A DNA stretch of 26,385 bases from a virus, in IMG/VR virus record IMGVR_UViG_3300034190_000720, positions 1 to 26,385 of that record; one strand, written 5' to 3'. The position numbers and the translations under genes were made by a program. This document shows positions 1 through 17,049 of the stretch, piece after piece. Position 1 is the first letter of the stretch. Each line of letters starts with the position of its first letter. Below the pieces are notes generated by a model. That model saw nothing but the letters and a program-made list of their open reading frames with translations, was not told where the DNA came from and did not search any database.

Positions 1-310
1 TAAAAGTTTTTCCTAAAATATTTATTTGTCTATCGCCTTTATTCTCTATAATTAAATCAGCTAACCTATCTCTTCCGAGATATTCTGAGGGTGCAGCACC
101 TTCATTAACCTTATTAGGTTCTGAAGATACAACATGTGAGTCAGCAGCCTGGATTTGCCAGAAGGTAGATTGTAAAACCTTACCTCCATTTAATCCGCCT
201 GTTGCAGATAAGAAAGGAGTTCTTTGACCACCTACACGGAATAGCTCTCCCGAAAAGTTGTTAATCTTTTGGGAGTAAAGTGTGTCACCTGTCAGCGTAA
301 TTGCTGCCAT
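1..310 (-). CDS. Major capsid protein, N-terminal part (cut by window edge)
   Basis: About 103 codons are visible, starting MAAITLTGDTLYSQK. The ATG at 310 has an excellent GGAGG ribosome binding site (317-321), seven bases away. The pattern near residues 30-55 (RTPFLSATGG, then a Trp-Gln in STFWQIQAADSH) resembles the N-terminal segment of HK97-fold major capsid proteins of the DUF5309/SU10-like group, where an invariant TPFL-type motif precedes a W-Q/T element. That family match is from memory of the motif, not from a search. The gene follows a scaffold-like gene by 41 bases, the usual scaffold-capsid order, and is last in the visible minus-strand operon. The identification rests on motif and position. 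A different head protein is possible but less likely. Confidence 0.7.
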   Translation of the reverse strand, partial: MAAITLTGDTLYSQKINNFSGELFRVGGQRTPFLSATGGLNGGKVLQSTFWQIQAADSHVVSSEPNKVNEGAAPSEYLGRDRLADLIIENKGDRQINILGKTF

Positions 311-351: not shown

Positions 352-819
352 TTATTTTTGTTGTTGTTTTTGTTGCTCCATGAAGTTTAATTTAGCTTTA
401 ATTGAGTCTTGTGTAGAAGCTGTTTTTAAAGCATTAACTAATTCTTCATTAGCATCAAGAGGAACATCTGAACGTGAATTTGCATCAAGTGCAGCTACTC
501 TAGCACGAGCATCATCTTGAACTACTGTTTCAGGTGCAGGTTGTGTTATTTCCTGTACTTGTCCACTAGATTCATAACCATACTCATCTTTAGCAAACTG
601 TGCGATAGATTCTGTATCAACAGGCCCATCATACACTTGTTTTAACGCCTTACCAAAACCATTGTTAGTTGATAATCCTAACTGACCAAAGACATTATCT
701 ATTTCCTTATCTTTATAAGAAGCTAGTTCTGCCTCAAGTTTTTTGATAGATTCATCTTTTCTATCAATAGTCTCTCTCATTTGTTTTACACCGTTCTCTG
801 GTGCATCAAATTCTTCCAT
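352..819 (-). CDS. Scaffold-like head assembly protein
   Basis: A 155-residue acidic protein with no membrane segment. Residues about 12-42 form a charged heptad-like stretch (QMRETIDRKDESIKKLEAEL) predicted to be a coiled coil. The rest is rich in Asp, Glu, Gln and Ala, and the C-terminus is MEQQKQQQK. Small, acidic, coiled-coil proteins immediately upstream of the major capsid gene are typically scaffolding proteins that guide procapsid assembly. The start is fixed by a GGAGG site at 826-830 in front of ATG 819. It is the first gene after a roughly 200-base structured leader, and with the capsid gene may form a separately transcribed unit. Function is inferred from position and composition only. 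Confidence 0.65.
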   Translation of the reverse strand: MEEFDAPENGVKQMRETIDRKDESIKKLEAELASYKDKEIDNVFGQLGLSTNNGFGKALKQVYDGPVDTESIAQFAKDEYGYESSGQVQEITQPAPETVVQDDARARVAALDANSRSDVPLDANEELVNALKTASTQDSIKAKLNFMEQQKQQQK

Positions 820-1024: not shown

Positions 1025-2056
1025 CTATTCTTCAATAAGTCCAGTAAATTGTTTACCTTTTTTAGCAGCTCCTGTTGTCACTCCTTGTGTAGATGCGTAT
1101 TCAGCAAGATATCTGTTGACTCTTTCTGTAAGATTAACGTCACCTAAAGCTGCTTCTTCTAATGTATTTATATCTAAATCTCTACCTATACTTGTAGCTT
1201 GACTTATTGTAGAACTTGCATTTGAATACAAACTTCTAGCTGTTTTAAAATCTAATCCTCTAAGTCTTAATTCTTTAGCTCTAGCAAATGAAGTACTAAA
1301 TCCTGCTGTAGTTCCTTGAGCTTGTATTTTTAAAGTATTAATTTGATTTTCTAAAACACCATCTTCAATATCTTTATTAATTAAAGCACCAAATATAGCA
1401 TCATCAGTAGCTTCTATACCATATAAATCAGCAAATAATTTTTTAACTTCTGGTATATCATCAACAACTTCGTTATAAACTAAAGCAAGTCGTTCTTCAA
1501 ATTCAATTGGAGCTGTACCATTAGTAATCATTTGTTCAAACTGTTTTGTAAACATTGAAGTATCTTCTATTCCATATTCAGATAAAGTAGATTTATAAGA
1601 CGCTATATTACTTAAAGCTTCTGCTTCTGTTTTAATTAATGTACCGTCTTTTCTTTTTAAAAATCCAAATTGTTTTTCCCAAGCTTTAGATGTATTACGT
1701 ACAACTCCTAATGCTATATCTGCTTTTCCGTGTTTAGCCCATGCTCTTGCAAAGTCTTCAAGTATTTCATCATCCATATATTGATATAAAGCTTCAGCAG
1801 TAGCTAATCCTTTTTCTAAACTAAATTGTGTTCCAGATACTGGTGAAGTAGTATCTTCATTTTGAGGATTCCATACAGCTGTTGTTCCATCTGATAAAAC
1901 TACAGTACCATCTTCATTATATTTAACTACATCTGTTCCTTGAAATTCATTTAATTGACTTGTTTCTACCCAATTTTGTGATTTATAATCTTCTACTAAT
2001 GCAGAATCTACCATTGCATATGACCCAGTGGGTGTTCTCATTTGTACTAATGCCAT
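1025..2056 (-). CDS. Virion-associated protein of unknown function (343 aa)
   Basis: The N-terminal ~75 residues (MALVQMRTPTGSYAMVDSAL..., then VVLSDGTTAVWNP) look beta-rich. The remainder is largely helical and acidic. The C-terminal third (VVDDIPEVKKLFADLYGIEATDDAIFGALIN..., then RAKELRLRGLDFKTARSLYSN) resembles a helical segment seen in large tail/virion proteins of marine and actinobacterial phages, but I cannot name a family. The start overlaps the stop of the upstream gene as TAATG, so translation is probably coupled. It ends in TAG at 1025, directly against a promoter-like sequence. Position between internal-virion-type genes and the scaffold gene suggests a head or connector role. Confidence 0.6.
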   Translation of the reverse strand: MALVQMRTPTGSYAMVDSALVEDYKSQNWVETSQLNEFQGTDVVKYNEDGTVVLSDGTTAVWNPQNEDTTSPVSGTQFSLEKGLATAEALYQYMDDEILEDFARAWAKHGKADIALGVVRNTSKAWEKQFGFLKRKDGTLIKTEAEALSNIASYKSTLSEYGIEDTSMFTKQFEQMITNGTAPIEFEERLALVYNEVVDDIPEVKKLFADLYGIEATDDAIFGALINKDIEDGVLENQINTLKIQAQGTTAGFSTSFARAKELRLRGLDFKTARSLYSNASSTISQATSIGRDLDINTLEEAALGDVNLTERVNRYLAEYASTQGVTTGAAKKGKQFTGLIEE

Positions 2057-3252
2057 TAACTTCTCCTTCCTGTAGTGTATTCATCTGTTCTAATTACATT
2101 TGTCATACCAGCAGTACTTAAAGCTGATGCTAATTCTGTAGCAGGGTCCATATATCCACGTTCTAATCCTGCAAGTTTAAGTATTTCTTTACGTTTAGCT
2201 ACATCAGGTTCTACTAATATTTGGTCTATAATACCATCACCTTTTTCTGGTGCTATACCCCATTCATTTTCAGCTAAAGCTACAGCATTACCATAAATAT
2301 TTTGCCAAGGAATTTCTTTGTCCCAATTATTGTTAAATGCAAATCTTTCATTTTTTAATTTTTCAATAAAATTATCATACCATTTTGGGTCTGTTAAGAA
2401 TTTACCAGCTAAATTATCAATATCAGCTAGATAAGGAGCATGTAATTCTTCAGGTAACCATGTATCTAATGCACTTTCAACTTCATCATGACCTGCAATA
2501 GACATTGTTACAACACCATTTTCTAATACATTTTTAAAATCATCATCTACTTCAAAGAGAGAATTTTTTTGAGTTGCTCCAGTTAATTGTTGTAAAGTAT
2601 AATTAGAACTCCAAGCTGTACTAGCCATTTTATTAGCTACCCATTCAATTGTATCGTCATCTAAAGATGCTTCTAATCCTAATAACATATTTTTAACTGA
2701 ATTAATATTTTCTTTAACCAGTTGTTGTTTACCTAATTTGTCACCTTTATATGAACGATATTGATTGTACATAGATTTTGTATATCCTTCTTCATTCAAA
2801 ATAGTTAAAAATCTATCATCTATTTCAAGATTAGATATAAAGTTATCAGAGTCTTCAATTATTAATTCTGTTAGTAAAGATTGAAAATCACTTCTTTTAG
2901 CCCATGGGTCCTCATCATAATGTTTACTGACGGCATCAATTGTATCTTGAATAATAAAAGAATTGTCATTTATATCGGAAATAGAACCTGCGTTCCATAC
3001 TTGTCCACTATCTTCTAAAGCTTTCCATTCTTCTTCAGTGTAAGTAATAAAACCTTCTATTATTGTTTTTAAAGTACCATCTGAGTTAAATTCAAGTTCA
3101 GGTGCATTAGTAATATTTTCTAAAGCATCCATAGTTAAATCCCAATAATATACCATACTTGTGTTTGGGTCTGTGTAAGCTAAGAAATATTCTCCTCCAA
3201 CTTGTATTAAAGTTGTACCTTGTGGTCCAAAATCTATTTTATAATCACTCAT
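2056..3252 (-). CDS. Virion-associated protein of unknown function (398 aa)
   Basis: The first ~45 residues repeat short hydrophobic/aromatic strands (KIDFGPQGTTLIQVGG, EYFLAYTD, MVYYWDL). This resembles the small beta N-terminal module of the next gene in the operon. The remainder is helical, acidic and rich in Trp and Asn, with no catalytic motif I recognise. The C-terminus reads RTDEYTTGRRS. The start (ATGAGTGA) overlaps the stop of the 799-residue gene by eight bases, and its own stop overlaps the next start (TAATG). It is probably made in step with its neighbours as part of one virion assembly. No function can be assigned from sequence. Confidence 0.6.
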   Translation of the reverse strand: MSDYKIDFGPQGTTLIQVGGEYFLAYTDPNTSMVYYWDLTMDALENITNAPELEFNSDGTLKTIIEGFITYTEEEWKALEDSGQVWNAGSISDINDNSFIIQDTIDAVSKHYDEDPWAKRSDFQSLLTELIIEDSDNFISNLEIDDRFLTILNEEGYTKSMYNQYRSYKGDKLGKQQLVKENINSVKNMLLGLEASLDDDTIEWVANKMASTAWSSNYTLQQLTGATQKNSLFEVDDDFKNVLENGVVTMSIAGHDEVESALDTWLPEELHAPYLADIDNLAGKFLTDPKWYDNFIEKLKNERFAFNNNWDKEIPWQNIYGNAVALAENEWGIAPEKGDGIIDQILVEPDVAKRKEILKLAGLERGYMDPATELASALSTAGMTNVIRTDEYTTGRRS

Positions 3253-5644
3253 TATCTTTATCCTTTGGGAACATATTGTTCCATCCTTTAGCTATTGTAT
3301 CACCTACATGTCTAAATCCAGGTGTAACTCCCATTTGTGGAAATGTTTCTTTCCAGGTATTTTTAAATTCTGGGTTTCTTTTTAAAAACCACTCATCTAG
3401 CCAATAGCTAGGCATAAGTCGTACAATCATACCCATCATTATACCACCATTAATCTTAGCATTTTCCATCATATCTTCTTCTAAAGTATCAACTCTTTTA
3501 TTAAATTCATCATAGTTACCAGTTAAAAGCATTGCCTGTGCTGTTTCAGGAACTGTTAAAGCAGAAGTACCAGCAGCTATACCACCTGATGCAATTGCAG
3601 TAGCAAATGTTTGTAATTCATATTTAATTAATTTAGAAGCTAACGAAGCTGCACCTGCTATACCAATTCTTCTTAATACAGTTTCTGCTGCTTGTTCTAT
3701 AGGAACTATAAACCATCCTGGTAAATTTTTAAGAACATCTTGAACAATAGAATCATCAATTTTTATATCATTTATTTTAGTTTCTACGTCTGCTGCCATA
3801 GCACCTACTGAACTACCAGGAATATATTTTTGTGTTTTACTCAACCATTCGTTTCTTAATCTATCTAATTTTTCTTGTTGTTCAGGATTAATAGGAACTG
3901 TATCTGGTGGCATTGGTTCACCTTTTAACCAAGCTTCGTACATAAGCATTGTTTCATCAAAGAATCTTGTTTTAACAATAACTTCTTTATGTTTTGATTC
4001 ATGTGAAAAAGGGTTACCCATACCTTGTCCACGACCAAATACCATATCTGCTTGTGATTTATTATTTACTATTTCTACAGTTAAATTAGGATATTTTTCT
4101 TCCATAATTTTTTTATAGGAATTTGCATGATTAGTTATTGAATTTTTATCTGAATAAGGATAAAATATTTTAACTACAGAATTTTCTACAGCTTTTGTTC
4201 CACTAGCACTATTACCTTGAACTGAATCTATTATTAATTGTTGTGCTTCTTTACCTAACTCTTCTGTACCATAAGACCTATTACCAGCAACATTCAAAGT
4301 TTCTATATTATTTTCTATCATCCAATTTCTTAACTGTTCAGGAGTTTCTGGATTTTCTATCCAAGGTTTATCTCCAGATGCTTTTTTAGTTGCACCATAG
4401 CCTGTACTATTTCCTTCTCCAAACCATACTGTACCATCAGCATTTTGTGCATTAGCTTTAGTTCTATCAGGATAGTATTGAGATTCTATTTGTTCCCATT
4501 TACCACTGTCTACAAACTCTTGAAAATTAGGACTATTACTTCCTTCAGGAACTACTTTAAAACCTTTATTAACTGTACCACCATAATCTAAACCTAATAC
4601 CTTTGCAGCTTCAATACCATATTGGTCTACATTTTTTTGCATACCAGATATTATTTTAGTTAGCTTTAACTCAGTAGGTTTTGAAGGTACACTACCAATC
4701 ATGTTTATAGCATTATTTAAATAATCTTTAAATCTTTGTGGTAATCCTACACCTGCACCAGTAGCAAAACCACCTGCAGAAACTTTAATAGGTTTTCCTA
4801 TATCTAAAGCTTTTTGTATCTGTTCATCTACATGTTGTTGAAATCTAGCAAAGTTATCATCAGTATCTGCAAAATCTTGTGTTCTAGAATATCTAGTATC
4901 TATACCAATAGCATTAGGTAATCCTCTAATTACTGCTTGTGTTTTAGTAGGTGTATGTTGTGTATTAAGTCTATCATTTGTATTATCACCAAATAAATAG
5001 GTATATTCAGTATCAGCTGCAACTTCTGCTCTATCCCAAAATTTATCCACTTTAATTACATTTTCAACCTCATCAGTTACTTTTACAAAAGCATCTAATC
5101 CATTATCTCTTAACGCAGTTAATATACGTGGCATTTCTTTAGTCCATATATCTGCTTGTCTATTAGGTATGTTATGTTCTATTGTCATATTTTCAGTGTC
5201 TAGTAATTTTTGATATGCTTCTGGATTTTGTTTGTACATAGAAGTTACTATCTGTTCCATTAACTCAATGCTAATTTCTTTATCTACTTTTTGACCAGCT
5301 ATTTTATATTGAACATCTGAAACTCTTACATATTTGTTGTATACATTTTCATCAAATGTACCTGACTTGTTAGTTTGATATGCATGTTCTACATTTCTAT
5401 AAGGTTTATCTTCAAATACAAAATCTCTAGGTGCAAAATTACTTAAATGACTAAATTTAGCATCACCACTATACGCATTAGCTATCTTAGGTTCATTTAA
5501 AGGCATCTGTTTTTTTTCGGCTAATTTAGCTTGTACACGTTTTTTTCTAGCTTCACGTTTTAAAAGCTCATCAGGGTCATATAATTCCCCATCTGGTCTT
5601 TCTGTAAATTTACTTATTAAAGTATTATTAACATCCTGTAGCAT
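3245..5644 (-). CDS. Four-domain polyvalent virion protein: NADAR, FGDN/PNAIG, molybdenum-carrier-like, DUF4326-like
   Basis: Seen in the sequence: residues 1-50 are a charged linker. Residues ~57-180 match NADAR (HLSNFAPRDFVFEDKPYRNVE-type segment ending in EHAYQ at 86-90, later D165-I-W167). Residues ~212-318 match a phage domain with LFGDN (217-221), VIRGLPNAIGI (238-248) and GAGVGLPQRF. Residues ~328-475 match the putative molybdenum carrier family (IISGMQKNVDQ, LGLDYGGTVNKGF, DGTVWFG, then ETLNVAGNRSY at 448-458). Residues ~488-575 resemble DUF4326 (FGRGQGMGNPF at 536-546, MYEAWLKG at 568-575). Residues ~640-745 are Ala/Gly-rich with amphipathic or membrane-like stretches. NADAR enzymes hydrolyse ADP-ribose linkages, including ADP-ribosyl-guanosine. 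The other three domains have no firm activity. The late-operon location implies a virion protein injected with DNA; that is inference. The start overlaps the preceding stop (TAATG). Confidence 0.8.
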   Translation of the reverse strand: MLQDVNNTLISKFTERPDGELYDPDELLKREARKKRVQAKLAEKKQMPLNEPKIANAYSGDAKFSHLSNFAPRDFVFEDKPYRNVEHAYQTNKSGTFDENVYNKYVRVSDVQYKIAGQKVDKEISIELMEQIVTSMYKQNPEAYQKLLDTENMTIEHNIPNRQADIWTKEMPRILTALRDNGLDAFVKVTDEVENVIKVDKFWDRAEVAADTEYTYLFGDNTNDRLNTQHTPTKTQAVIRGLPNAIGIDTRYSRTQDFADTDDNFARFQQHVDEQIQKALDIGKPIKVSAGGFATGAGVGLPQRFKDYLNNAINMIGSVPSKPTELKLTKIISGMQKNVDQYGIEAAKVLGLDYGGTVNKGFKVVPEGSNSPNFQEFVDSGKWEQIESQYYPDRTKANAQNADGTVWFGEGNSTGYGATKKASGDKPWIENPETPEQLRNWMIENNIETLNVAGNRSYGTEELGKEAQQLIIDSVQGNSASGTKAVENSVVKIFYPYSDKNSITNHANSYKKIMEEKYPNLTVEIVNNKSQADMVFGRGQGMGNPFSHESKHKEVIVKTRFFDETMLMYEAWLKGEPMPPDTVPINPEQQEKLDRLRNEWLSKTQKYIPGSSVGAMAADVETKINDIKIDDSIVQDVLKNLPGWFIVPIEQAAETVLRRIGIAGAASLASKLIKYELQTFATAIASGGIAAGTSALTVPETAQAMLLTGNYDEFNKRVDTLEEDMMENAKINGGIMMGMIVRLMPSYWLDEWFLKRNPEFKNTWKETFPQMGVTPGFRHVGDTIAKGWNNMFPKDKDNE

Positions 5645-6834
5645 TAACCTCTACCCATCATGTATTGAGTATATGTTTTTTGAACGTCACGTATTGTTTT
5701 TTGATTTTGTAACCATTCTTGTTCTTGATTAAAATCATCTTTTATTTTATCTGTAGCAGCATCTATAGGATTAACTGCATTAAATGCTTCTTTTATTTCA
5801 GGTACTTCAAGTTCAACATATTTAGTTGATGGTTTTTCAGTAACTGGGTCTACAGTAGGTACTGATTTATGTGTATTGTAAACTTCATCAGCTCTTAAAT
5901 ATTTATCTTGTGCTACTAAAGCTGATACCCATGGTGACCAGTCTTCAGCTATATCTTTAATAATGTTATCTTTATATGTATCACTCATTTGTTCACCATA
6001 TAAAGAATAATATAAATCTTCTATATCTCCTATAAAATCTGAAGGAACAGGTTGTTTATTTTCATTTTTAATTTCTATAGCACGTTCAACATCAAAATTT
6101 CTTTTACCTAATTGATTTAACTGTCCTAATTCCATAAAAGCTAATTGAAACATTTCTCTACTTAAAATTTGATTGTCACTTAATTTATCAGTAGCTCCAC
6201 CAAAAATACTATTAACTTGACCTCTACCTCCAGATTTCCAAGATTTTAAATTATCTATTGCTTTTGTTCTAGCAATACTACCTTCTTCAAAATCTTCATA
6301 TTCTTGCATAACGTATTGAAGAATACCATCTATTAATCCTTGAGTAATAGGACCTTTTACACCGTTAACTTCTCCACCAAGTTGTTCATAATCAATTAAT
6401 CCATAACTCACAGCCATGTCTTGTATTCTTTGTATTTGTTCTCTATTTAAAGTATCGTAAAAAGATGTAGCAAAATTTTCAGATGGAAATATCTTTGTCA
6501 TATCTACAGTAGCTATTTCAGGTTCACCATTAGTTATTATTGGATTACCAGCACTATCTTTTTTAGTATAAGTTCTTGTATCTGGATTAGAAACACCACC
6601 ATAACCATCATAATTAAAACTTTCATCATTATTATCCATGTTTGCCTTAACAAAACTGTTATACAAAGTTAAAAATGCTTGAACAGAACCTTCACTCAAA
6701 GAAGACATTTGTTCTTTTAGAATGTCTACATTACTTGTAGTCAAAGAATAATTTCCTGGATTAGCAAATTGCTCAGTTAAAGAAGCCGATAATGACTCAT
6801 TTATTAATTCTATATCTTCTGGACTTAACGGCAT
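5644..6834 (-). CDS. Virion-associated protein of unknown function (396 aa)
   Basis: A mostly helical, acidic protein (starts MPLSPEDIELINESLSASL, ends YTQYMMGRG). No transmembrane segment or catalytic motif is visible. Its size, composition and place between the giant protein and the four-domain protein suggest an internal virion or ejection-complex component. The ATG at 6834 directly follows a TAA (6835-6837) closing an open frame that continues from the giant gene, and its own TAA overlaps the next ATG. The Y..Y/GR ending recalls the ends of two neighbours (YNKYLGQRREMGY and EYTTGRRS). Function unknown. Confidence 0.6.
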   Translation of the reverse strand: MPLSPEDIELINESLSASLTEQFANPGNYSLTTSNVDILKEQMSSLSEGSVQAFLTLYNSFVKANMDNNDESFNYDGYGGVSNPDTRTYTKKDSAGNPIITNGEPEIATVDMTKIFPSENFATSFYDTLNREQIQRIQDMAVSYGLIDYEQLGGEVNGVKGPITQGLIDGILQYVMQEYEDFEEGSIARTKAIDNLKSWKSGGRGQVNSIFGGATDKLSDNQILSREMFQLAFMELGQLNQLGKRNFDVERAIEIKNENKQPVPSDFIGDIEDLYYSLYGEQMSDTYKDNIIKDIAEDWSPWVSALVAQDKYLRADEVYNTHKSVPTVDPVTEKPSTKYVELEVPEIKEAFNAVNPIDAATDKIKDDFNQEQEWLQNQKTIRDVQKTYTQYMMGRG

Positions 6835-7059: not shown

Positions 7060-10000
7060 TTATAATTCTTCAGCTTCTTCCCAATATTCCATAAATTCAT
7101 TAAAACCTTGACCTGATTCATATTCTTTAGCAAAATCTAAAGTAGTCCATTTATCACGCATTTCTTTAAATCGTTCTTTAACACTAGCTTGTTCAGTCTG
7201 ACCATAAGAAGCTTGAAATCCAGGATGTGTTTCAATTAAAGCAAGTCTAAAAGCTTTAATGTGATACTCAGCTTCTGCGGGACTCATTTGTCTATTCTTT
7301 ACTAATTGTTGTGTTTGTGTTTTAAACTTGTCATATTTAAACCAAGCTACAGTATCGTTAGCAGCTCTTAAAAAAACTTCTGGATTAACAGTAGCTTGAG
7401 CTATCATATCAGAATATGTTCTTTCATTTTCAGGATTTTCTGTATTTAAATAATGATATGTTATAGGTAATTGATTTATTTCATCTATATGTTTATCTTT
7501 CCAAACTTTTAATTCTTGGTCAAAAACTATAGCAAATGGTGCTTTATTTTTACTACTTGTAAGAATATATCCATGGTCTAAACCAATTGTGTTTGCAAAT
7601 TCTTCAGCTGCAGCTCTATGGTCTCCATAATGTTCTTGAACTAAATCATCGTAATGTTGTGCTAATACTGCAGTAGCCCACCATTTACCAGATTTATCTT
7701 GTACAGCACTTCTTATTACAGGTCCTGTTGGTACTGGTGTTCCTGTAAATTGAAATAAACTTCTTACTAAACTAAACCATCTAGCTTCGTGTGCAGAATA
7801 CATCATTAAAGCTCTATCTAATACTTCGTTAGATAATTCACCTTCTTCATACTTATAAGGCATATTTCCATTTTTTTGATGCCATTCAAGCATTTCTTTT
7901 TGAGATGCTACTTTTCTTACGCCATCCCAATTAGGTAGAAGTTTTTTTATGTACTTATCTAATTTACCGTTTTCTAAATAGATAATATCACTATTAGATA
8001 TTTTTGCATCTTCCCAAAATTTAATAGTAGTTTCAGCTCTTAATGAGTTCATCTTGTTACTCATATCCCATTCTATAAAATTGTTATCTGAATCAACATA
8101 CGTATCACTAAATTTTTCAACAAATATTTGTGCTATATCTAAAGGAGTACCTGCAACTCTTGCCCATTTAAGCCAAGGTATATTTCCTATAGTATTTAAT
8201 GCTTCAGCCATTGAATCTGGTGGAGGGAAAGCTCCAAAAAATTCATCTTGAAACTCTTGGTCAAAACCAACCATTTGTCCAAACTTACTGTCAAATAACA
8301 TATTTTGTGCATATTGAACTAAAGGACTACCAGATGGAAATCCCTGTGTACTTACCATGTTTACACCACCAGCAAAACCTACTAAATTTTGTCTCATTCT
8401 ACCGTCTGTTCCAAAAGCCATATCCATATGCATTGGTTGAGCAGGATAAACAAATACAGTTTCACCTGTTAATGGGTCTTCTTGCCATCTACCTTGACCG
8501 TAATAAGTATTATTACCACCCCATGATTGCAAAGCATTTTGTGCAGCGTCTGCTCCTCTAATAGTATATGGATTAGCTGCAACAGCTTTAGACCACCTTT
8601 TACCCATTTCAATAAATACTTCTGGGAAAGGAATTATATTTCTAGTAACTTCTGATATTCTGTGTTTATTTTTTGTATCATACAAAACAGCTTTCATTTG
8701 TTGTACAGCATAAGAGTTAGCTAGATTACTCCAACTTTCATAATTATTTATACTTCCAGATTTACCTAGACCTATTGTTCCATTTAATTCATCTATAATA
8801 TAACTAGGTACTTTTGCTTTAATTGCTTCATCTAAAAATTTCTTTTGTAACTTAGGTGTAAATTTATCAAAGTGTGCTCCTATTTTTATCCATCTATATT
8901 GTTTGAAAATAGGACTACGGTTTAATCTTCCAGTTGGTGACTGTAATAAAAACTCAAACCAATTACCATGAACATCACTCATTGTATCAACTAATTTTTG
9001 TATTTTTTCTTGAGCAGGTGCTGATGGAACTACTACATCTCCAAAATTATAAACGAACTCATTAGCATCATCTTTTTTATTTACATAAGTTAAAATAGAT
9101 TCTTTTAATTCTTTTTGGTTTTTAACAGTATATTTTTCATACGGATTATCTGAATCCCATTTAGCAGCTAATTTAATATCTTTTCCATTAGCATCTTTAT
9201 ATTTACCATAAGCTATACCTTCTCTTAATTCTTTTGAACCCGTAAAAGTATGAGATACGTCATGTGAATATTCTGCACCATTAACACCTGCTTCTATTCT
9301 TGAATAATGTATACCTTCTGTCATTTTCATTCCAGTACGCATACGTATTTCATTTTCACGAGCAAACAAATAACGTAACCAATTTTCTTGAAGACGAATA
9401 CTATTGTCTTTATTTGATACATATTTAGGTCCTGTAAGGTTTATTAATCTTTCACGTAATTTAATAGCTTCAGCAGTTTTTGACCATTTAATTATGTCAT
9501 CAGGATTACCATTTTCCATTTTTGCTAATGCTCTTGAAATAGGGTCATTATGTAATTTTAAAAATTGAAATAAATATCCATCTACAGCCCAAGGATTATC
9601 TGCAGTTACTGTTTTATAATCAATCATTTTTTTATTAATAGATGCTTGTTTAAAACCAGAGTATGCAAGTTGTGCATTTATAGCTTCATGAAAATACTGT
9701 GACTGTGTTACTTCATTTATATCTTCACCAGAGTCAATAAGTTTTTTAGCTAACAATGATATTGGATTGTATTTAGCACCTTTAGGAACATAACCATAAG
9801 AAAACAACCAAGCAAAATATTTATCTGGTCTATCAAACATTCCAAACAATTGAGGAAATACTGAAAAGAATAACTGTTCTTCTAAGATAACACGTAATGT
9901 AAGTGCTGGTTTAGCTATTAACCAAGGTTTTAACAAATCATTCATATAAAAATTTGCTACTGTATCTATTGTTCCACCTTTAGGATTAGCAGTAGGTATT

Positions 10001-12747
10001 TTTAATCCTTTATTTTTAGCTAAACTTTTAGCAAATGCTGCTGTTTTATCCCAAAATGCTGCATCTTCTAAGTCTGGGATAACATCAAACATATCAGACA
10101 ATACTCTGTTTAAAGCTCTATTGTTTGTTAAAGGAGCTCCTTGTTGAGCAGTCTCTGATATTTTTGTAACTGATGGAATAAAAGTAGTATCACCAGTAAG
10201 TTCATCTACAAAACGTGGTGTCCATTGGTCATGCATCATATTACCTTCAGGACTTGTTAAGTAATTAGTCATTTGTAAACTTGAATTTCTTTCTTTTCTA
10301 ATATAATCTCTTAACCATTTAGCTTTACCCAATCCTTTTCTTTGAGCTACCATAAGAATATCTGTATCAAATAATTCATGTGCAAATTCATCAATGTTAG
10401 TAACAGTATGTTTCATTTCTGTAAATTTAGTTAACATATGGTCAGCCATTTTGGTACTGTAACCAGTGTTTAATAAATGATTTACTAAAGTTCTATAAGC
10501 ATCTTTTCTATTACTATATGACAATGTACTTTGTGGTTGTATAGAAAAAGCTTTTTTAAATCTTGGACTCATACCTGCAGTTAACTCAGAATAAAATCCA
10601 AGTCCTCTTTGAGTACTTAATTCTCCTGTTGCTTCAAACAATTCAAAATCTGCTTTAGATACATATTCCATATCAGTTTTAGGTTTTAATCTAACGTTAT
10701 TAATCATATCTGCAGAAAATCTTTTACCTGCTCTATATGTTTCATCTATTGCACGAATTGTTTTATTAATACCTCTTCCTGCTATTGAGCCTAAAGTAGC
10801 TTGAGCAGTTTTATTTCTTAAATTAGCACTTAACCAACGTCTTCCTTTAGGCAAACTATCTAATTGAAATGCCATATCCATTCCAGGCATTTGAACTCCA
10901 TCACCATACATTCTTTTAAACACTTTTAACATAGATTCTTTATTGTCAATATTGGCCATCATTACTTGTATTTGTTCTGGAAAATCTCTAGTCCAAGGGT
11001 TTTGATTTAATTCGATTAAAGATTTATTTTTAACAAGAGCATCTATCTGCCCAGCATCATCTAACATAGTTGTAATATCATCTGCTGTTTTTGAAAATGC
11101 TCTAGGTACCCATCCACCTATTAATCCCCACTCTTTTTTTAATCTACCAGTTTGTTTACGTGCGTCTTTTAAACTTTTAGCTAAAGGTTTTAAAAGTTTA
11201 GTGCTACCATAATCATCAAAAGTTTCTATAAATTCATCTGCGTTTTTTAATTTTTGTCCTGTTATAGGATTTTGTTTATTAGTTTTAATCCAATCGTTAA
11301 TCATTTGTTTCTTTTTAATTGGACTCCATAATTCATTATCTGCATATTGTGCAAGTCTATTAGGAGATTTACTAAGTTTTTGTAGTTTTTGTATACCTTT
11401 AATTGTTTTAAAGAATCCAACTTCAGTCATAAGTCTTAAAGTACCGTCAATCATTCCTGAAGTATTTTTGTAAGCTTGTGAACCTACTTCAAACTTAAGA
11501 CCTGCAGAATATCTTCCATGTGAATATGGCACTTTAGTACCCATTTGTTCATTAATATTCCATACTCTATTTTTTGTATATTCCTCTGCAAGTTCAGGTG
11601 TTTGTATAAATCTTCTACCTGCAAACAATTCTATTTCATTTGGTTTTTGTATTGATTGGTAATTAATATCTCCATTTAAATTAGGTTTAATTATTTGTTT
11701 ACCTTTTTTATTATAAAACCATTCAACATATTCAGCTTTAGTCATTTCACCAGATGTAACTAAATCATGAAACAAAGGGTCATCTTCAGCTTTTACTGAC
11801 ACTACAGAAATATAATTTTTAGTATTTATGTTTACAGGTTTTCCTCTTCTAACTTGATTTATCATTTCTAATACATAAGGTGAACCACCTCTTTCTGCAC
11901 CTTCTTGCCAAGCTTTAATCCAACCTTTTGTTTCTTCTAGCCAATTTTCTTTTTGTCCAAAATCAGATTGATTAACTATATAGCTACCTTCAAAATCAAT
12001 AGGAACAAATTCTTTTGCATAATCTAAAGTTTTACCTTCTTCAATAAATCTATCTAATGCATTCATTTGTTGAGCATATGCAAATACACGTCCAGCAAAT
12101 TGTGGTTTATTATCAGGCAATAAAAACTGTCCACCTGGTACCGCAAGTAATCCTTTTTGCATCCAGTTTAAATCTTGAGTATTTCCTTCGTTTAGAAGTT
12201 CAAACTTATTTGTTTCTTTATTATATTTAATTGTGTCGTTTTCATATTTACCAATAAAATGTGGAGAGTATTTAACTAATGTGTCACCTAAACCTTCAAA
12301 CAAAGCCATTGTCCATAACGAAGCAGTTCTAATAGGAGTAAGAATAGTTCTAACATCTCTCCTTCTTTCTTTCCACATTTGCTCTGGGTCATTTTCTTTA
12401 CCACCTACAGTATTAAAATAATTTTGTCCCCAATCAATATCTGGACCATGTCCATAAAGACGTCTATTTTCTTGTACATTAATATAATTATTTGCTTGAA
12501 CAGCCATCATTGTATTTTGATATCTCTCAGCCATATCTTGAAATGCTTTAGAATCTATAGGTATATTAGTTTGTTGAGCCATAGGAATTATTACTTCAGG
12601 AGGAAGAATTGCATATCTTTCTGATATTGCAGTAAACCTAGTTTCAAATTGTGGATTAATGTCTAAAAAATGTATAGCTTGTTGTTGTCTTTGACGTTCT
12701 CTAACGCCTTGAACAGCTACATCTTTGGCAGCAAATGCTTCAAACAT
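7060..12747 (-). CDS. Giant (1895 aa) internal virion / ejection-type protein
   Basis: One uninterrupted frame with no recognisable enzyme motif: no lysozyme/transglycosylase signature, Walker box or RNA-polymerase motif was found by eye. It is rich in helices and Trp/Tyr/Phe. Notable segments are RTILTPIRTASLWTMALFEG near residue 140, a hydrophobic stretch near 930-980 (LLKPWLIAKPALTLRVILEE, then LFFSVFPQLFGMF), and IIPFPEVFIEMGKRWSKAV near 1380. An F-P-F/E...RW-type segment of this kind occurs in large internal proteins of other phages. The size and the place after portal and small head genes fit a protein stored in the capsid and ejected with DNA. It starts at ATG 12747, overlapping the preceding TAA (TAATG). 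Confidence 0.65.
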   Translation of the reverse strand: MFEAFAAKDVAVQGVRERQRQQQAIHFLDINPQFETRFTAISERYAILPPEVIIPMAQQTNIPIDSKAFQDMAERYQNTMMAVQANNYINVQENRRLYGHGPDIDWGQNYFNTVGGKENDPEQMWKERRRDVRTILTPIRTASLWTMALFEGLGDTLVKYSPHFIGKYENDTIKYNKETNKFELLNEGNTQDLNWMQKGLLAVPGGQFLLPDNKPQFAGRVFAYAQQMNALDRFIEEGKTLDYAKEFVPIDFEGSYIVNQSDFGQKENWLEETKGWIKAWQEGAERGGSPYVLEMINQVRRGKPVNINTKNYISVVSVKAEDDPLFHDLVTSGEMTKAEYVEWFYNKKGKQIIKPNLNGDINYQSIQKPNEIELFAGRRFIQTPELAEEYTKNRVWNINEQMGTKVPYSHGRYSAGLKFEVGSQAYKNTSGMIDGTLRLMTEVGFFKTIKGIQKLQKLSKSPNRLAQYADNELWSPIKKKQMINDWIKTNKQNPITGQKLKNADEFIETFDDYGSTKLLKPLAKSLKDARKQTGRLKKEWGLIGGWVPRAFSKTADDITTMLDDAGQIDALVKNKSLIELNQNPWTRDFPEQIQVMMANIDNKESMLKVFKRMYGDGVQMPGMDMAFQLDSLPKGRRWLSANLRNKTAQATLGSIAGRGINKTIRAIDETYRAGKRFSADMINNVRLKPKTDMEYVSKADFELFEATGELSTQRGLGFYSELTAGMSPRFKKAFSIQPQSTLSYSNRKDAYRTLVNHLLNTGYSTKMADHMLTKFTEMKHTVTNIDEFAHELFDTDILMVAQRKGLGKAKWLRDYIRKERNSSLQMTNYLTSPEGNMMHDQWTPRFVDELTGDTTFIPSVTKISETAQQGAPLTNNRALNRVLSDMFDVIPDLEDAAFWDKTAAFAKSLAKNKGLKIPTANPKGGTIDTVANFYMNDLLKPWLIAKPALTLRVILEEQLFFSVFPQLFGMFDRPDKYFAWLFSYGYVPKGAKYNPISLLAKKLIDSGEDINEVTQSQYFHEAINAQLAYSGFKQASINKKMIDYKTVTADNPWAVDGYLFQFLKLHNDPISRALAKMENGNPDDIIKWSKTAEAIKLRERLINLTGPKYVSNKDNSIRLQENWLRYLFARENEIRMRTGMKMTEGIHYSRIEAGVNGAEYSHDVSHTFTGSKELREGIAYGKYKDANGKDIKLAAKWDSDNPYEKYTVKNQKELKESILTYVNKKDDANEFVYNFGDVVVPSAPAQEKIQKLVDTMSDVHGNWFEFLLQSPTGRLNRSPIFKQYRWIKIGAHFDKFTPKLQKKFLDEAIKAKVPSYIIDELNGTIGLGKSGSINNYESWSNLANSYAVQQMKAVLYDTKNKHRISEVTRNIIPFPEVFIEMGKRWSKAVAANPYTIRGADAAQNALQSWGGNNTYYGQGRWQEDPLTGETVFVYPAQPMHMDMAFGTDGRMRQNLVGFAGGVNMVSTQGFPSGSPLVQYAQNMLFDSKFGQMVGFDQEFQDEFFGAFPPPDSMAEALNTIGNIPWLKWARVAGTPLDIAQIFVEKFSDTYVDSDNNFIEWDMSNKMNSLRAETTIKFWEDAKISNSDIIYLENGKLDKYIKKLLPNWDGVRKVASQKEMLEWHQKNGNMPYKYEEGELSNEVLDRALMMYSAHEARWFSLVRSLFQFTGTPVPTGPVIRSAVQDKSGKWWATAVLAQHYDDLVQEHYGDHRAAAEEFANTIGLDHGYILTSSKNKAPFAIVFDQELKVWKDKHIDEINQLPITYHYLNTENPENERTYSDMIAQATVNPEVFLRAANDTVAWFKYDKFKTQTQQLVKNRQMSPAEAEYHIKAFRLALIETHPGFQASYGQTEQASVKERFKEMRDKWTTLDFAKEYESGQGFNEFMEYWEEAEEL

Positions 12748-13190: not shown

Positions 13191-13377
13191 TATAAAAATC
13201 TCTTGTAACTACAATAAATATTCCTGGTATTGGTTGTACAATATCCATAACATCTTTGTCTGTTAATTCCATTTCTTTTATTTCACCATATTCTTGATGT
13301 ACTAAATCCCAAAATTCAATATCAAAATAATCTTGCATATTTCTATATCCCGAACGCTTGAGCCATTCCTGGTACAT
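13183..13377 (-). CDS. Small protein (64 aa) after the portal gene
   Basis: Start chosen at ATG 13377 because GGAGG lies five bases before it (13383-13387). A longer GTG start at 13389 would put this site inside the coding region. The 64-residue product (MYQEWLKRSGYRNMQDYF..., ending TRDFYNE) is acidic with a hydrophobic IPGIFIVV segment near the C-terminus. It overlaps the portal gene by 35 bases and the next gene by eight. It could be a head-tail connector accessory protein, but no family is recognised. Confidence 0.6.
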   Translation of the reverse strand: MYQEWLKRSGYRNMQDYFDIEFWDLVHQEYGEIKEMELTDKDVMDIVQPIPGIFIVVTRDFYNE

Positions 13378-15130
13378 TTTGTCCTCCACCCATTAGTTGT
13401 TGTTGTTGCATTTGTTGCTGAATCATCATTTCTTCTTCAGGTGACATCTGCGGTTCTTGAGGAGTATAAAACTGCTTCATAATATCTGTAATAGCAGAAG
13501 GATACTCATAAATAGCTATAGCAGCCATTGTAGCTGCAGGGTCACCTTGTGCAGACCTAGCTAAAATACTATCAAACAATACTTGTTCAGCTTTGTTTTT
13601 ACGTATACGTTCTTGTACTTTAGCTATATTTTCTAAACCATCAATGTTATCTTGTAATGTTTCTACATCTATAACACCTGCTTGTAACAATTGCAAACCA
13701 GTCACAATTTTTTGTGGTTCATCAAATCCAGCCATAACACCATAGATACGTCTAGTTCTAAAGTCTCCACCTATATCTTGTAATGCATGGTAGTTTTCAC
13801 TAAAAGCAGCACCGTTAATAAAACCTGCCATAGGTTTTTTAATTACTCCAGTAGTGTAAGATAATACAACATCCATTTCTAGACGTTTTTCATCCATTTG
13901 AACTATTGCATGTTTAATAACATCCCTGTATTCAGATATCATTAATGACATTGTGCTATTTAATTCTGATAACCCAGCACCAGTAACAAAAGAGTTAGGT
14001 GACTGTGAGTCATCAGTAACTGGATAACCACCTACCATACGTAATTGTCTTTCCAATCTATCGATTTGTTGGAACAATTGATACGGCATATTGTTCATTG
14101 GTTTAGAAACTTGTGTACCAGGAGCGAGATAGTTTACCGCAAATCTACCTTTTCTGTATTGTCCGGATTCTATCTCTCCTGATATGTTTGTTTCTGTAAA
14201 CACAGAATCTTCCATCGCAATTGCAGACATTATGTTAATTTTTGCCATCATTGCCATTAGTCCTATTACGTGGTCATATTGACCTTTAAGTTGGTCAAAA
14301 GAAACTTTCTTCATAAATACAAATGGAGGTGTAGATAATACGTTTGGTATAAAATCTAAAATCATATTTCGTTCTGGGAACACTACATAAGTACCACCTT
14401 GGTCATAGTATTCAACAATCCTTACACCAGAGTATGTATTATCTTCCCACGCTTGTTCTCTATTGTTTTCATATGATAAGAAAGGTGAAGCATTATCAGT
14501 TTGTGCATCTTCAGCATCTTCGTCTTGTTTTAATATTTCTTTTGCAAATTCAGGATATATCTGTGCAAGTTTATATCTAGGTACACGTCTAACTACAGCC
14601 ATTTCTCTTGGTTGTTGGTCAGGACCAAAGTTTCCTGGGAATGTATCATAAGGGTCTCTTAGTTCAGCACTAGGATACAAATGACCATTTTTATCTAACT
14701 TGCTAGTAATTACCCAAGCACAGAAACCATAACCAGGTAACCACCTAGCAGCTTGTTGTAATTGGTTAAGTAAATTTTGTTTTTCGTCATAGCTAGTAAC
14801 AATACGTTCTAGCTTATCTGCTCTTGCTTTACTACGCATAGAGTCATTATCATTAGGTACATCTACTCTAACTTGAGGTATTCCTGAAATTTTTTGTGCT
14901 AGTCGGTCAATACCAGACTGAAGCATATTAGGAGCTGGTAATAAATCAGCATCAGATGTTTCCATTGTATCGCCTAATAAAGCTTTGATACCATCTGCAC
15001 CACCATTAAGAATAGATTTAATTCTAGCTTTTTGAATTTGTCTTTCTTGTACTAATTTACCCGAAGTTAATTCAGCAGCATTTTTAATAATTTCTTGATA
15101 GGTTTTTGCTCCAATGTTCTCTATCCCCAT
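13343..15130 (-). CDS. Portal protein
   Basis: A 595-residue protein directly after the large terminase, overlapping it by ten bases, with the length and organisation of phage portal proteins. These form the dodecameric DNA gate at one capsid vertex. The N-terminal half contains the usual mixed region with PNMLQSGIDRLAQKISG, QLQQAARWLPGYGFCAWVI and the AELRDPYDTFPG segment. A long helical middle follows (FQQIDRLERQLRMVGGYPV; SELNSTMSLMISEYRDV). The last ~40 residues are a Gln/Met-rich tail (QQQMQQQQLMGGG). Gene order terminase-portal and these segments support the call. No structure-level confirmation is possible here. Confidence 0.85.
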   Translation of the reverse strand: MGIENIGAKTYQEIIKNAAELTSGKLVQERQIQKARIKSILNGGADGIKALLGDTMETSDADLLPAPNMLQSGIDRLAQKISGIPQVRVDVPNDNDSMRSKARADKLERIVTSYDEKQNLLNQLQQAARWLPGYGFCAWVITSKLDKNGHLYPSAELRDPYDTFPGNFGPDQQPREMAVVRRVPRYKLAQIYPEFAKEILKQDEDAEDAQTDNASPFLSYENNREQAWEDNTYSGVRIVEYYDQGGTYVVFPERNMILDFIPNVLSTPPFVFMKKVSFDQLKGQYDHVIGLMAMMAKINIMSAIAMEDSVFTETNISGEIESGQYRKGRFAVNYLAPGTQVSKPMNNMPYQLFQQIDRLERQLRMVGGYPVTDDSQSPNSFVTGAGLSELNSTMSLMISEYRDVIKHAIVQMDEKRLEMDVVLSYTTGVIKKPMAGFINGAAFSENYHALQDIGGDFRTRRIYGVMAGFDEPQKIVTGLQLLQAGVIDVETLQDNIDGLENIAKVQERIRKNKAEQVLFDSILARSAQGDPAATMAAIAIYEYPSAITDIMKQFYTPQEPQMSPEEEMMIQQQMQQQQLMGGGQNVPGMAQAFGI

Positions 15131-17049
15131 GGTGCTTCGTTTGCCTCCGTCATTTTGTAATCTCCATAACTAGGTTTATAATCTAAACCAATATCAGCCG
15201 AATGCTCTTTTTGCATACGCCTATATACTTTCATTGGAAACCAACTTGCCATAACTATATCAGTTTTTTCCTTGTTTCGTTTAGAAACGGGTTTCCCATC
15301 AAAGTATAACAGTTGTTGCCTGTATTGCTGTATCTTTGCATTAGATTCTCCATCACCTGTAGGTAGATGTATTTTCTTATTTTCAAACAAATCAGCCATG
15401 GCTCCAACACCATACAAAGGGTCATGTTTATTTTTACCTGTCATATGTCCTTGTACTTGTATACCTGTACGTAATGTAAATTCTTTTATTTGTGAATCTT
15501 GTCTAATAGCAGTTTGAAAACCATTCTCTTCTACTATCCAATGTCTACAATCAAATCTATGTAACCAATCAGACATTTGGTCTAACGCAGCTCTAATACC
15601 ACCACCACGTCTATTTTCTAAATCAACTAAATACAACTCACCTCTGTATAAATCTATACCCCACAATACACTTGCTTGATAACCACTTGATGCAGGGTCT
15701 AACCCAGCTACAAGATGTAAGTTTTTATATACTTGACCTAAAACTAAATCTGGTCTAAAACATTGGTCAATCATATTCATAGTAAAGATTTGTGTACCTT
15801 CTACATATGCTTGGTTGTAGTAAACCATTTCAAATGTTTGTCTACCACCTGTTGATTCAGCAGAGTGTAACCTAGACATTAACCATTTGAATGTTCTTTT
15901 ATTTGGCCATAACATACAACTAATATGTTCGTCTTCTAAATGTTCTGGTTTATCACAATCTATAGCATGTGCTGTTTCAACTATACTTGTAAAGTTATCT
16001 GATTCAAGTAAGTGATTATATAAATCATCAGGGTGCTGTCTTGAACCAATAACAACTACAGCAGTATGTTCCTCTTTACGACTTGATAATGTTGTAGTCC
16101 ACCATTGTCTTGTGCTTTCTCTTGCACCAGGTTGCATTGTAGTTTGATGGTCCTCAATGTCATCAGCAATAATAATATCACAGTCACGTGATAAAATTTT
16201 TCCACCTTTACCTACAGCAACCATTGTAGGTGATTTAATACCTGCTACTGTTCTTGTCCCTACAGTAAATTGATTCTGTGACCAGTTTTTACCTGACCTA
16301 TTATCTGGTTTAAAATTTGTACCAGGCATACAAAAATCTTCTCTTAACTCTTCATTAGTATCTAATACATCAAGTACAGCAGATAATGCGTTCTTAGCAA
16401 TGTCTTCGTTCCCACCTACCCACATAATACGTACGTTGGGGTTTTTGCATATTTGATATACAGCAAAGTGTATTAATAATTCAGTCTTTCCATGTCGTGG
16501 GGGTGACAGTATTAATAGTTCCTTACCGTTTTTTATACTATCAATAATGTTATTAATCCAGTTAGTGTGAAAAGGAGCGGTTTCGTATTTCTTTCCTAGC
16601 TCTGTTCTAAAATAGCGTTGTCGGAAGTCAGAAAAATTTTCTAGTGCAGCTTTCGCTTCTTTAGATAGTTCCCAATCTTCTGCAGCTATTTCGTTTTTAG
16701 TATCAATCTTGAAGGCAGCAAGCATGCGACTGACAGTAGCAGAAGTGCAACCAAGGAGGGAAGCTGCTTTAGCTACCGTCATGTCGCCCGTTGCAACTGT
16801 TTCAGCTATACCTTCGCTTACGAAAGCTCGGTAATACTGTCCTCTTCTAACTGAGGCGTAGTCGCCCTCGTCAGACTTACGTTCTATATTAATAGGTTTT
16901 ACGTCATCCTGCTTGTTATATATATTATCTCTAGCAAATTGTCTTTTTTGGCATGTAGGAGAACAAAACTTACGTTGTTTGCCTTTGAGTTTCTTTCTAC
17001 AGCCCTCTGCAATACAGATTACATTATTGGTAGTATCTACCATATTCAC
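15121..17049 (-). CDS. terL: Terminase large subunit with N-terminal zinc finger and helix-turn-helix
   Basis: This is the DNA-packaging motor. The ATPase domain shows Walker A SPPRHGKT (182-189) and Walker B DIIIADD (291-297). The RNase H-like nuclease domain shows AGLDPASSG (Asp 451), VEENG (Glu 507/508) and TDIVMASW (Asp 597). Ahead of these are a Cys4 motif (Cys12, 17, 29, 33) and a helix-turn-helix-like stretch (~89-113, DMTVAKAASLLG then SATVSRML). Such N-terminal DNA-binding modules are unusual in length and may cover part of the small subunit's job. The start is GTG 17049; ATG 17043, two codons on, is equally plausible since neither has a strong ribosome binding site. A good promoter lies 30-60 bases upstream. 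Confidence 0.93.
   Translation of the reverse strand: MNMVDTTNNVICIAEGCRKKLKGKQRKFCSPTCQKRQFARDNIYNKQDDVKPINIERKSDEGDYASVRRGQYYRAFVSEGIAETVATGDMTVAKAASLLGCTSATVSRMLAAFKIDTKNEIAAEDWELSKEAKAALENFSDFRQRYFRTELGKKYETAPFHTNWINNIIDSIKNGKELLILSPPRHGKTELLIHFAVYQICKNPNVRIMWVGGNEDIAKNALSAVLDVLDTNEELREDFCMPGTNFKPDNRSGKNWSQNQFTVGTRTVAGIKSPTMVAVGKGGKILSRDCDIIIADDIEDHQTTMQPGARESTRQWWTTTLSSRKEEHTAVVVIGSRQHPDDLYNHLLESDNFTSIVETAHAIDCDKPEHLEDEHISCMLWPNKRTFKWLMSRLHSAESTGGRQTFEMVYYNQAYVEGTQIFTMNMIDQCFRPDLVLGQVYKNLHLVAGLDPASSGYQASVLWGIDLYRGELYLVDLENRRGGGIRAALDQMSDWLHRFDCRHWIVEENGFQTAIRQDSQIKEFTLRTGIQVQGHMTGKNKHDPLYGVGAMADLFENKKIHLPTGDGESNAKIQQYRQQLLYFDGKPVSKRNKEKTDIVMASWFPMKVYRRMQKEHSADIGLDYKPSYGDYKMTEANEAPWG

What the first reader, a model, noticed from the sequence alone, without database searches (positions are those of the whole stretch)
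3245..5644. A single virion-operon protein stacking four usually separate phage domains (NADAR, FGDN/PNAIG, molybdenum-carrier-like, DUF4326-like)
Seen: motif sets for four small domains occur in order in one 799-residue frame: EHAYQ (86-90), LFGDN and RGLPNAIGI (217-247), ETLNVAGNRSY (448-458), GRG..GNPF (537-546). Known: NADAR proteins remove ADP-ribose from nucleic acid or nucleotides, and the other three families are commonly stand-alone phage or bacterial proteins of uncertain, nucleotide-related function. Inference: fused to a C-terminal virion-type region and placed between structural genes, they may be a package of counter-defence or NAD/nucleotide enzymes injected with the genome. I know of no described protein with this exact combination.
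Basis: partly seen in the sequence, partly recalled or inferred. Interest (0 to 1): 0.9.

Follow-up and report, generated by a model that had tools for sequence, protein, structure and literature searches.

The report
Phage virion-gene protein with swappable enzymes
A gene placed among the shell-building genes of an uncultured marine virus of bacteria makes one long protein that carries four small enzyme-like domains that handle NAD- and ADP-ribose-type molecules, and relatives of the virus carry a different mix at exactly the same place, as if the virus packs an exchangeable kit for disarming its host's defences.

Summary
Confirmed and extended. The 799-aa frame (3245-5644, minus) holds NADAR (Pfam E 7.6e-6, below gathering score), DUF7831 (2e-10; the "FGDN/PNAIG" domain), cpYpsA/SLOG (1.5e-12; the old "molybdenum carrier" family) and a divergent DUF4326-like domain (0.05 forward, supported in reverse). 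The protein is not a one-off. It fills a fixed slot between portal and capsid genes in an uncultured marine phage lineage. About 57 distinct slot proteins range from 135 to 1518 aa; neighbouring genes barely vary in length, and five records have no slot gene. Most share a homologous helical C-terminal core. Upstream of it, 26 carry NAD/ADP-ribose-type modules (NADAR, SLOG, A1S_2505, DUF7831, DUF4326-like, phrog_9995, Nudix) in 20 orders. Modules move singly: 349-463 nt blocks at 85-95% identity cover one domain between otherwise divergent genomes (18 high-identity blocks in slots, 0 in flanks). Best reading: a virion-carried, C-terminally docked cargo protein whose enzymes destroy or sequester host ADP-ribose signals or adducts. 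Virion location and activity are inferred. Polyvalent proteins, MuF toxins and NADAR/SLOG/DUF4326 fusions are known; the single-site, domain-by-domain exchange is the new part.

The parts
3245..5644 (-). slot (cargo) protein, 799 aa, whole gene
   Evidence: ORF; slot between p396 and p398 genes conserved in the lineage
5507..5644 (-). N-terminal leader, residues 1-46, shared with L001, L003, L052
   Evidence: own profile
5102..5482 (-). NADAR domain, residues 55-181; E86, K93, H157, W167 at the active-site positions
   Evidence: Pfam 7.6e-6, PHROG 1017 3.4e-10, own profile; residue roles from PMC11543638
4697..5053 (-). DUF7831 domain, residues 198-316 (LFGDN...RGLPNAIGI)
   Evidence: Pfam 2.1e-10, own profile
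4220..4666 (-). cpYpsA (SLOG superfamily) domain, residues 327-475
   Evidence: Pfam 1.5e-12; PDB 3imk 6.8e-5
3839..4180 (-). divergent DUF4326-like domain, residues 489-602 (GRGQGMGNPFSH)
   Evidence: Pfam 0.052 on excised domain; reverse profile finds three true DUF4326 proteins; hhalign with GNPF_b 92%, 6.9e-7
3248..3763 (-). conserved all-helical C-terminal core (proposed virion dock), residues 628-799
   Evidence: profile found in most slot proteins; hhalign links core groups A to E; AlphaFold2 all helix, low confidence
5644..6834 (-). upstream neighbour p396, ATGA overlap with the slot gene
2056..3252 (-). downstream neighbour p398, overlaps the slot gene
1025..2056 (-). p343; homologous to gp13 of Streptomyces phage Immanuel3
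   Evidence: PHROG 8424, hhalign 97.8%, 1.2e-12
352..819 (-). scaffold-like 155-aa protein directly before the capsid gene
   Evidence: conserved position, 69-85% identity in relatives; scaffold role inferred from position
2..310 (-). major capsid protein, start of gene (cut by the window end)
   Evidence: SU10_MCP-like 2.9e-4; 80-90% identity to full capsid genes of relatives
7060..12747 (-). 1895-aa protein between portal and p396, unknown function
13343..15130 (-). portal protein
   Evidence: 84-100% identity in 80 relatives; portal of Streptomyces phages 23%
15121..17049 (-). terminase large subunit
   Evidence: PHROG 38 2.1e-67

Best explanation
The gene occupies a cargo slot in the portal-to-capsid operon of an uncultured marine phage lineage. 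Its product is a two-part protein. The C-terminal helical core is fixed and probably attaches the protein to the virion or passes through the ejection channel. The N-terminal string is a changing set of small NAD+/ADP-ribose-handling modules. In this phage the set is NADAR (cleaves N-glycosidic bonds of ADP-ribose adducts or derivatives), cpYpsA/SLOG (binds or cleaves adenine-nucleotide derivatives such as cADPR-type signals), DUF7831 (unknown) and a DUF4326-like domain (predicted phosphatase-like). Most likely the protein is made late, packaged, and delivered with the DNA so that the enzymes act at once, before phage transcription, to remove ADP-ribose signals, toxic ADP-ribose products or ADP-ribose adducts made by host immunity. 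The mix is reshuffled module by module by recombination, as expected in an arms race. Shown here: domains, slot, core homology, exchange of single-domain DNA blocks. Inferred: packaging, injection, catalysis, immune targets.
For: Three of four domains by curated profiles, NADAR active-site E86/K93 and the phage-type His kept. Slot gene lies between portal and capsid genes in every relative with a slot gene, overlapping or abutting its neighbours. Slot proteins 135-1518 aa, length CV 0.62 against 0.01-0.14 for flanking genes; five records lack the gene altogether. Cores A to E homologous. Cargo census dominated by NAD/ADPr families, incl. Nudix nearest to ADPR/NMN enzymes, A1S_2505, cpYpsA, NADAR. 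Cargo modules in 1679 non-slot ORFs: one FSALNA instance, plus one WW hit that was itself an unlisted slot gene. Single-domain blocks at 85-95% nt identity between divergent genomes, 18 in slots, 0 in flanks of 4.4 times the compared length; module changes on the p343 tree nearly as many as carriers, e.g. DUF7831 6 changes for 7 carriers. Cultured distant relative Immanuel3 has NlpC/P60 and SLT cell-wall enzymes in the same block and a p343 homologue, the usual company of ejection proteins. crAss-like cr131_1 gp48 has NADAR-DUF7831 in tandem in a large ORF with similarity to phi14:2 gp66, annotated 'structural protein' in one record and RNA polymerase in another; crAss001 RNA-polymerase proteins are in virions by mass spectrometry (PMC10172136).
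Against: No proteomics, so virion location is not shown. The core resembles no solved structure or known ejection protein; the structure model is weak (pLDDT 65). Hydrophobicity of the core is moderate, not clearly transmembrane. No protease for releasing single domains was found. The same modules are stand-alone early genes in N4-like phages, so virion delivery is not needed for their function. The possible host group Ca. Actinomarinales is reported to lack toxin-antitoxin and CRISPR systems (PMC7771536), which would reduce the need for counter-defence. Many slot proteins carry no recognisable NAD-type module.
Confidence: 0.6

Rival explanations
1. The modules do serve NAD/ADPr chemistry, but for metabolism or repair (NAD recycling, repair of RNA ends or NAD-capped RNA, host takeover) rather than for blocking immune signals.
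For: NADAR and Nudix families include riboflavin-intermediate, NAD(+) diphosphatase and NMN/ADPR enzymes; PMC9503650 names RNA repair and NAD salvage as alternative roles; hosts with few known defence systems are possible (PMC7771536).
Against: Housekeeping functions would not be expected to be swapped module by module at one site with little overlap between close relatives.
Confidence: 0.2
2. The protein is a late cytoplasmic protein, not packaged: it blocks superinfecting phages or late-acting host defences, and its place in the operon only sets its timing.
For: Position alone cannot tell virion proteins from late cytoplasmic ones; no proteomics; the core has no known homologue.
Against: Conserved C-terminal core retained even in slot proteins with no cargo (135-286 aa), which suggests a structural role of the core; NADAR-DUF7831 in a crAss-like large ORF of virion-RNAP type.
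Confidence: 0.15
3. The modules are inactive nucleotide-binding decorations used for structure (e.g. filling or binding DNA inside the head).
For: The DUF4326-like domain lacks the family's CHG segment at the usual place; the cpYpsA glycine motif is altered (SGMQKNVDQ for GGQTGVD).
Against: NADAR keeps E86, K93 and the phage-type His; modules stay within recognisable families and are similar to stand-alone early genes of N4-like phages.
Confidence: 0.05

Closest known systems
Polyvalent proteins of phages and conjugative elements (Iyer et al. 2017, PMC5512222)
   Same: Several small domains of different chemistry in one polypeptide, encoded among packaging/virion genes, predicted to be injected with the DNA.
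   Different: NADAR and SLOG do not occur in the main text of that paper and no zincin peptidase or DNA-methylase/helicase dyad was found here; here one homologous C-terminal core sits at one genomic site and single-domain DNA cassettes are seen to move.
NADAR/SLOG/Macro/DUF4326 fusions of DNA viruses (Iyer et al. 2022, PMC9503650; jumbo phages PMC7824862)
   Same: Same domain families, same proposed role: processing of ADP-ribose derivatives of host immunity, with some genes near virion morphogenesis genes.
   Different: There the domains are said to be typically stand-alone, with fusions as distinctive cases; no fixed slot, dock or domain-level exchange was described in the passages read; DUF7831 and the phrog_9995 domain are additions.
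MuF polymorphic toxins of temperate phages (Jamet et al. 2017, PMC5576092)
   Same: A fixed virion-type domain joined to a variable effector, encoded in the packaging region.
   Different: No MuF domain here; the fixed part is C-terminal and the variable part N-terminal; several modules per protein; cargo is ADPr-handling rather than toxic.
crAss-like phage cr131_1 gp48 (NC_055902)
   Same: NADAR followed directly by DUF7831 in a large ORF, 25% identity over 363 columns to this protein.
   Different: Carried by a 1401-aa ORF whose N-terminal part resembles a crassvirus RNA-polymerase/structural protein; no homologous C-terminal core; TAG read as Gln.
Early-gene clusters of Schitoviridae (N4-like phages)
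   Same: A1S_2505, DUF4326, DprA/SLOG-like and phrog_9995 proteins occur there.
   Different: Each is its own small early gene; here they are fused and late-placed.

Membership tests
NADAR (PF08719) | profile match over the curated cut-off | tested here: not met
   26.7 bits against 35.1, E 7.6e-6; PHROG 1017 3.4e-10 over the same stretch
NADAR (PF08719) | active-site Glu and Lys, and third residue Glu/Asp, or His in phage members | tested here: met
   E86, K93 (seven residues apart as in E43/K50 of the solved NADAR), H157; same in L114, L110, L148, L154 (sequences; residues)
DUF7831 (PF25176) | profile match over the curated cut-off | tested here: met
   40.9 bits against 27
cpYpsA, SLOG superfamily (PF12694) | profile match over the curated cut-off, full length | tested here: met
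   48 bits against 26.2, profile 1-141 of 145; PDB 3imk
DUF4326 (PF14216) | profile match over the curated cut-off | tested here: not met
   14.7 bits against 25, E 0.052, profile 8-48 of 82
DUF4326 (PF14216) | GRG...GNPF motif | tested here: met
   GRGQGMGNPFSH in window, invariant MGNPFS in five relatives
DUF4326 (PF14216) | C-terminal CxC..P..CHGD segment | tested here: not met
   absent at the C-terminus; an N-terminal YYP..SHA segment may be its permuted counterpart, inconclusive
Polyvalent protein | two or more domains of disparate activity in one polypeptide | tested here: met
Polyvalent protein | encoded with packaging or virion genes | tested here: met
Polyvalent protein | injected with the DNA at entry | not testable with these tools
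   needs virion proteomics and translocation assay
Polyvalent protein | hallmark domains of the described network (e.g. zincin peptidase) | tested here: not met
   Pfam scan of 57 slot proteins
MuF polymorphic toxin | MuF domain | tested here: not met
   no MuF family among Pfam hits of slot proteins, p396, p398, p343, p1895

The most novel reading that the evidence does not exclude
A dedicated, dispensable cargo slot in a virion operon: a fixed C-terminal dock protein onto which single-domain DNA cassettes for ADP-ribose-processing enzymes are loaded, removed and reordered by recombination between phages, so that the lineage keeps an exchangeable injected counter-defence kit at one locus.
Probability: 0.5. 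Interest if true: 0.9.

Novelty: new variant of a known kind. Interest (0 to 1): 0.78.

Why it matters
If right, one locus read across marine viromes gives a catalogue of NAD/ADP-ribose counter-defence modules, several of unknown chemistry (DUF7831, phrog_9995, A1S_2505), already sorted by evolution as a functional set, and makes their substrates directly testable. It would also give a virion docking module for carrying foreign domains, and a case where exchange units are single protein domains inside a gene rather than whole genes.

Tried and rejected
phrog_9995 ('FSALNA') as a hidden NADAR: hhalign 13%, not supported. DUF7831 as relative of A1S_2505: 3%, not supported. Cores F and I as members of the same core superfamily: not supported. 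Circular permutation of the DUF4326-like domain: best segment pairing only E 0.0045, inconclusive. Full-length fragment alignments for structure prediction failed because of rearranged order. AlphaFold2 of the DUF4326-like domain (pLDDT 67) and of the core (65) were too weak; Foldseek gave no significant match. A p396-based scan found few relatives. Solved-structure searches of the core, p343, p1895, A1S_2505 and DUF7831 gave nothing significant, nor did one of the NADAR segment alone. My iterated cpYpsA profile bled into the end of the phrog_9995 domain in some proteins, so SLOG counts use the SLOG2 profile. The first filter for divergent genome pairs was too lax and was replaced.
Full report
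What was checked. The frame at 3245-5644 (minus) is a single open reading frame of 799 residues. The fourth domain is a divergent relative of DUF4326: the forward Pfam score is 14.7 bits (E 0.052) on the excised domain, but the profile of this domain and its relatives picks out three true DUF4326 proteins of cultured phages at 2e-7 to 6e-7 in a small test set and nothing else. It keeps GRG...GNPFSH but not the C-terminal CHG segment. The NADAR keeps the catalytic Glu and Lys (E86, K93, same spacing as E43 and K50 of the solved enzyme) and has His (H157) where phage NADARs are reported to have His (PMC11543638).

Surroundings. The gene lies in a run of overlapping genes on one strand: terminase, portal, p147, p1895, p396, slot protein, p398, p343, a 155-residue scaffold-like protein, capsid. 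There is no close relative in 50,697 phage records; the portal is at best 23% identical to Streptomyces phages. Scans of IMG/VR with the slot protein, portal and capsid brought in many relatives. In all that reach far enough the gene order is the same, and the place between p396 and p398 holds one open frame whose product runs from 135 to 1518 residues; in five records it is empty. Length variation (CV 0.62, n=54) contrasts with 0.01-0.14 for the neighbours.

Architecture. Profiles built from the modules show that cargo lies N-terminal to a C-terminal core. Core groups A to E are homologous (A-B 4e-39, A-E 1e-17, B-C 3e-8, A-D 1e-8; groups F and I not linked). Some slot proteins are core only. 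Twenty-six of 57 distinct slot proteins carry at least one of NADAR (5), SLOG (14), DUF7831 (7), DUF4326-like (8), A1S_2505 (7), phrog_9995 (13) or Nudix (5), in 20 different orders (counted; family hits). The window order NADAR-DUF7831-cpYpsA-DUF4326-like was seen only here. Examples: L114 NADAR-DUF7831-SLOG; L110 NADAR-A1S_2505-SLOG; L154 NADAR-DUF4326-like-DUF7831-SLOG; L001 cpYpsA-DUF4326-like-phrog_9995; L002 A1S_2505-phrog_9995-cpYpsA; L174 DUF7831-DUF4326-like-phrog_9995-SLOG plus an unknown domain. In 1679 distinct non-slot frames of the same records the modules had two matches: one phrog_9995 domain in L144, and one short unknown 'WW' domain in L073 which proved to be a slot gene I had not listed.

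Exchange. Modules are far more alike than their backgrounds: Nudix 99% between L149 and L142 while p398 is 37%; phrog_9995 97% between L180 and L115 while p398 is 37%; cpYpsA 83% between the window and L002 while p398 is 29%. At DNA level many blocks of high identity coincide with one domain: 371 nt at 95.4% (DUF4326-like, L001/L148), 349 nt at 94% (DUF7831, L003/L148), 381 and 368 nt at 95% (phrog_9995, L160/L162 and L016/L171), 413 nt at 88% (cpYpsA, L002/window); a few are longer, such as 764 nt covering two modules (L002/L115), and one of the 18 is a core block. Over 1302 divergent pairs there are 18 such blocks in slot genes and none in the flanks, although 4.4 times more flank was compared. 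On a tree of the neighbouring p343 protein the modules change state 3 to 8 times each for 5 to 11 carriers. A second SLOG type in the slot is a circular permutant of cpYpsA: swapped halves match (93.5% and 79% probability), unswapped halves do not.

Meaning. What is shown is a modular protein in a fixed, dispensable slot of the structural-gene block with a conserved end and rapidly exchanged, mostly NAD/ADPr-type modules. That it is a virion cargo protein is inferred from the operon; from the cultured distant relative Immanuel3, whose block carries NlpC/P60 and SLT cell-wall enzymes and a p343 homologue; and from crAss-like cr131_1, where NADAR and DUF7831 lie in tandem in a large ORF whose first part resembles phi14:2 gp66, annotated 'structural protein' in one record and catalytic RNA polymerase subunit in the other; proteins of that kind are in crAss001 virions (PMC10172136). 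That the modules remove ADP-ribose signals or adducts rests on the named families and on the analysis in PMC9503650.

Known and new. Polyvalent proteins (PMC5512222), MuF toxins (PMC5576092) and NADAR/SLOG/Macro/DUF4326 fusions (PMC9503650, PMC7824862) are described. I found no description of a single virion-operon site with a conserved C-terminal dock and domain-by-domain DNA exchange of such modules; the literature search was limited to open-licence PMC papers and a handful of queries, and most papers were read only in part. N4-like phages hold several of the same families as separate early genes, which fits a common pool of modules that can be used either as early genes or as virion cargo.

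Host. One capsid relative lies on a contig of a marine Actinomycetota MAG. The window's G+C of about 32% matches Ca. Actinomarinales (32.5%, PMC7771536) and the nearest cultured relatives infect Streptomyces. This is a weak host guess; binning errors are common. That group is reported to lack toxin-antitoxin and CRISPR systems, which is a point against the counter-defence reading if it is the host.

Limits. No experiment; structure models weak; NADAR and DUF4326 assignments of the window copy are below Pfam cut-offs; metagenome records are fragments; E-values of the home-made profiles are inflated because the profiles were trained on the same small set.

Noticed in passing
L114:2323-4746, L052:19516-21210 and others, compared with window residues 327-475: The second SLOG type in the slot is a circular permutant of cpYpsA (GGQSG motif at the C-terminal end instead of the N-terminal end); both permutants occupy the same locus.
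   Followed up: partly
L161, L163, L164, L166, L167: p396 is followed directly by p398: the slot gene is missing, so it is dispensable.
   Followed up: yes
L144:19863-21116: The only phrog_9995 module outside the slot lies at the end of another gene downstream of the capsid gene; perhaps a second cargo site.
   Followed up: no
Slot proteins L001, L002, L016, L115, L124, L162, L180; p343 C-termini: A recurrent linker (G)GSLGAAKLNDPNVF sits between cargo and core, and a similar LGAAKKDG lies near the C-terminus of p343; maybe a processing site or a recombination anchor.
   Followed up: partly
L204 (Streptomyces phage Immanuel3 gp11, gp12): Two adjacent proteins seem to share a C-terminal region but carry different cell-wall enzymes (NlpC/P60, SLT) in front: the same dock-plus-head logic with other heads.
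   Followed up: partly
L205:1574-5779: crAss-like cr131_1 gp48 reads through eleven in-frame TAG codons (as Gln) and holds NADAR-DUF7831 in a virion-RNAP-type ORF.
   Followed up: partly
L152, L159, L160, L172, L174, L178, L186, L189: An unnamed domain of about 220 residues ('FWL') occurs only with core F, always just before it.
   Followed up: no
L031:15673-17100 and L195:5740-7011: Near-identical slot proteins differ by one copy of a 52-residue stretch around a DPxEGYxGPAYDAQTMD repeat (475 vs 423 aa).
   Followed up: no
window 21689-23904 and 25967-26385: A CobS-like AAA_5 ATPase followed by a 500-aa protein (CobT/vWA-like by eye), and a Rad52/Mgm101-type annealing protein; the latter could help module recombination.
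   Followed up: no
L207 (PBPX01000048.1): A capsid relative with a slot protein identical to that of L150 lies in a MAG labelled Actinomycetota, a hint at the host.
   Followed up: partly
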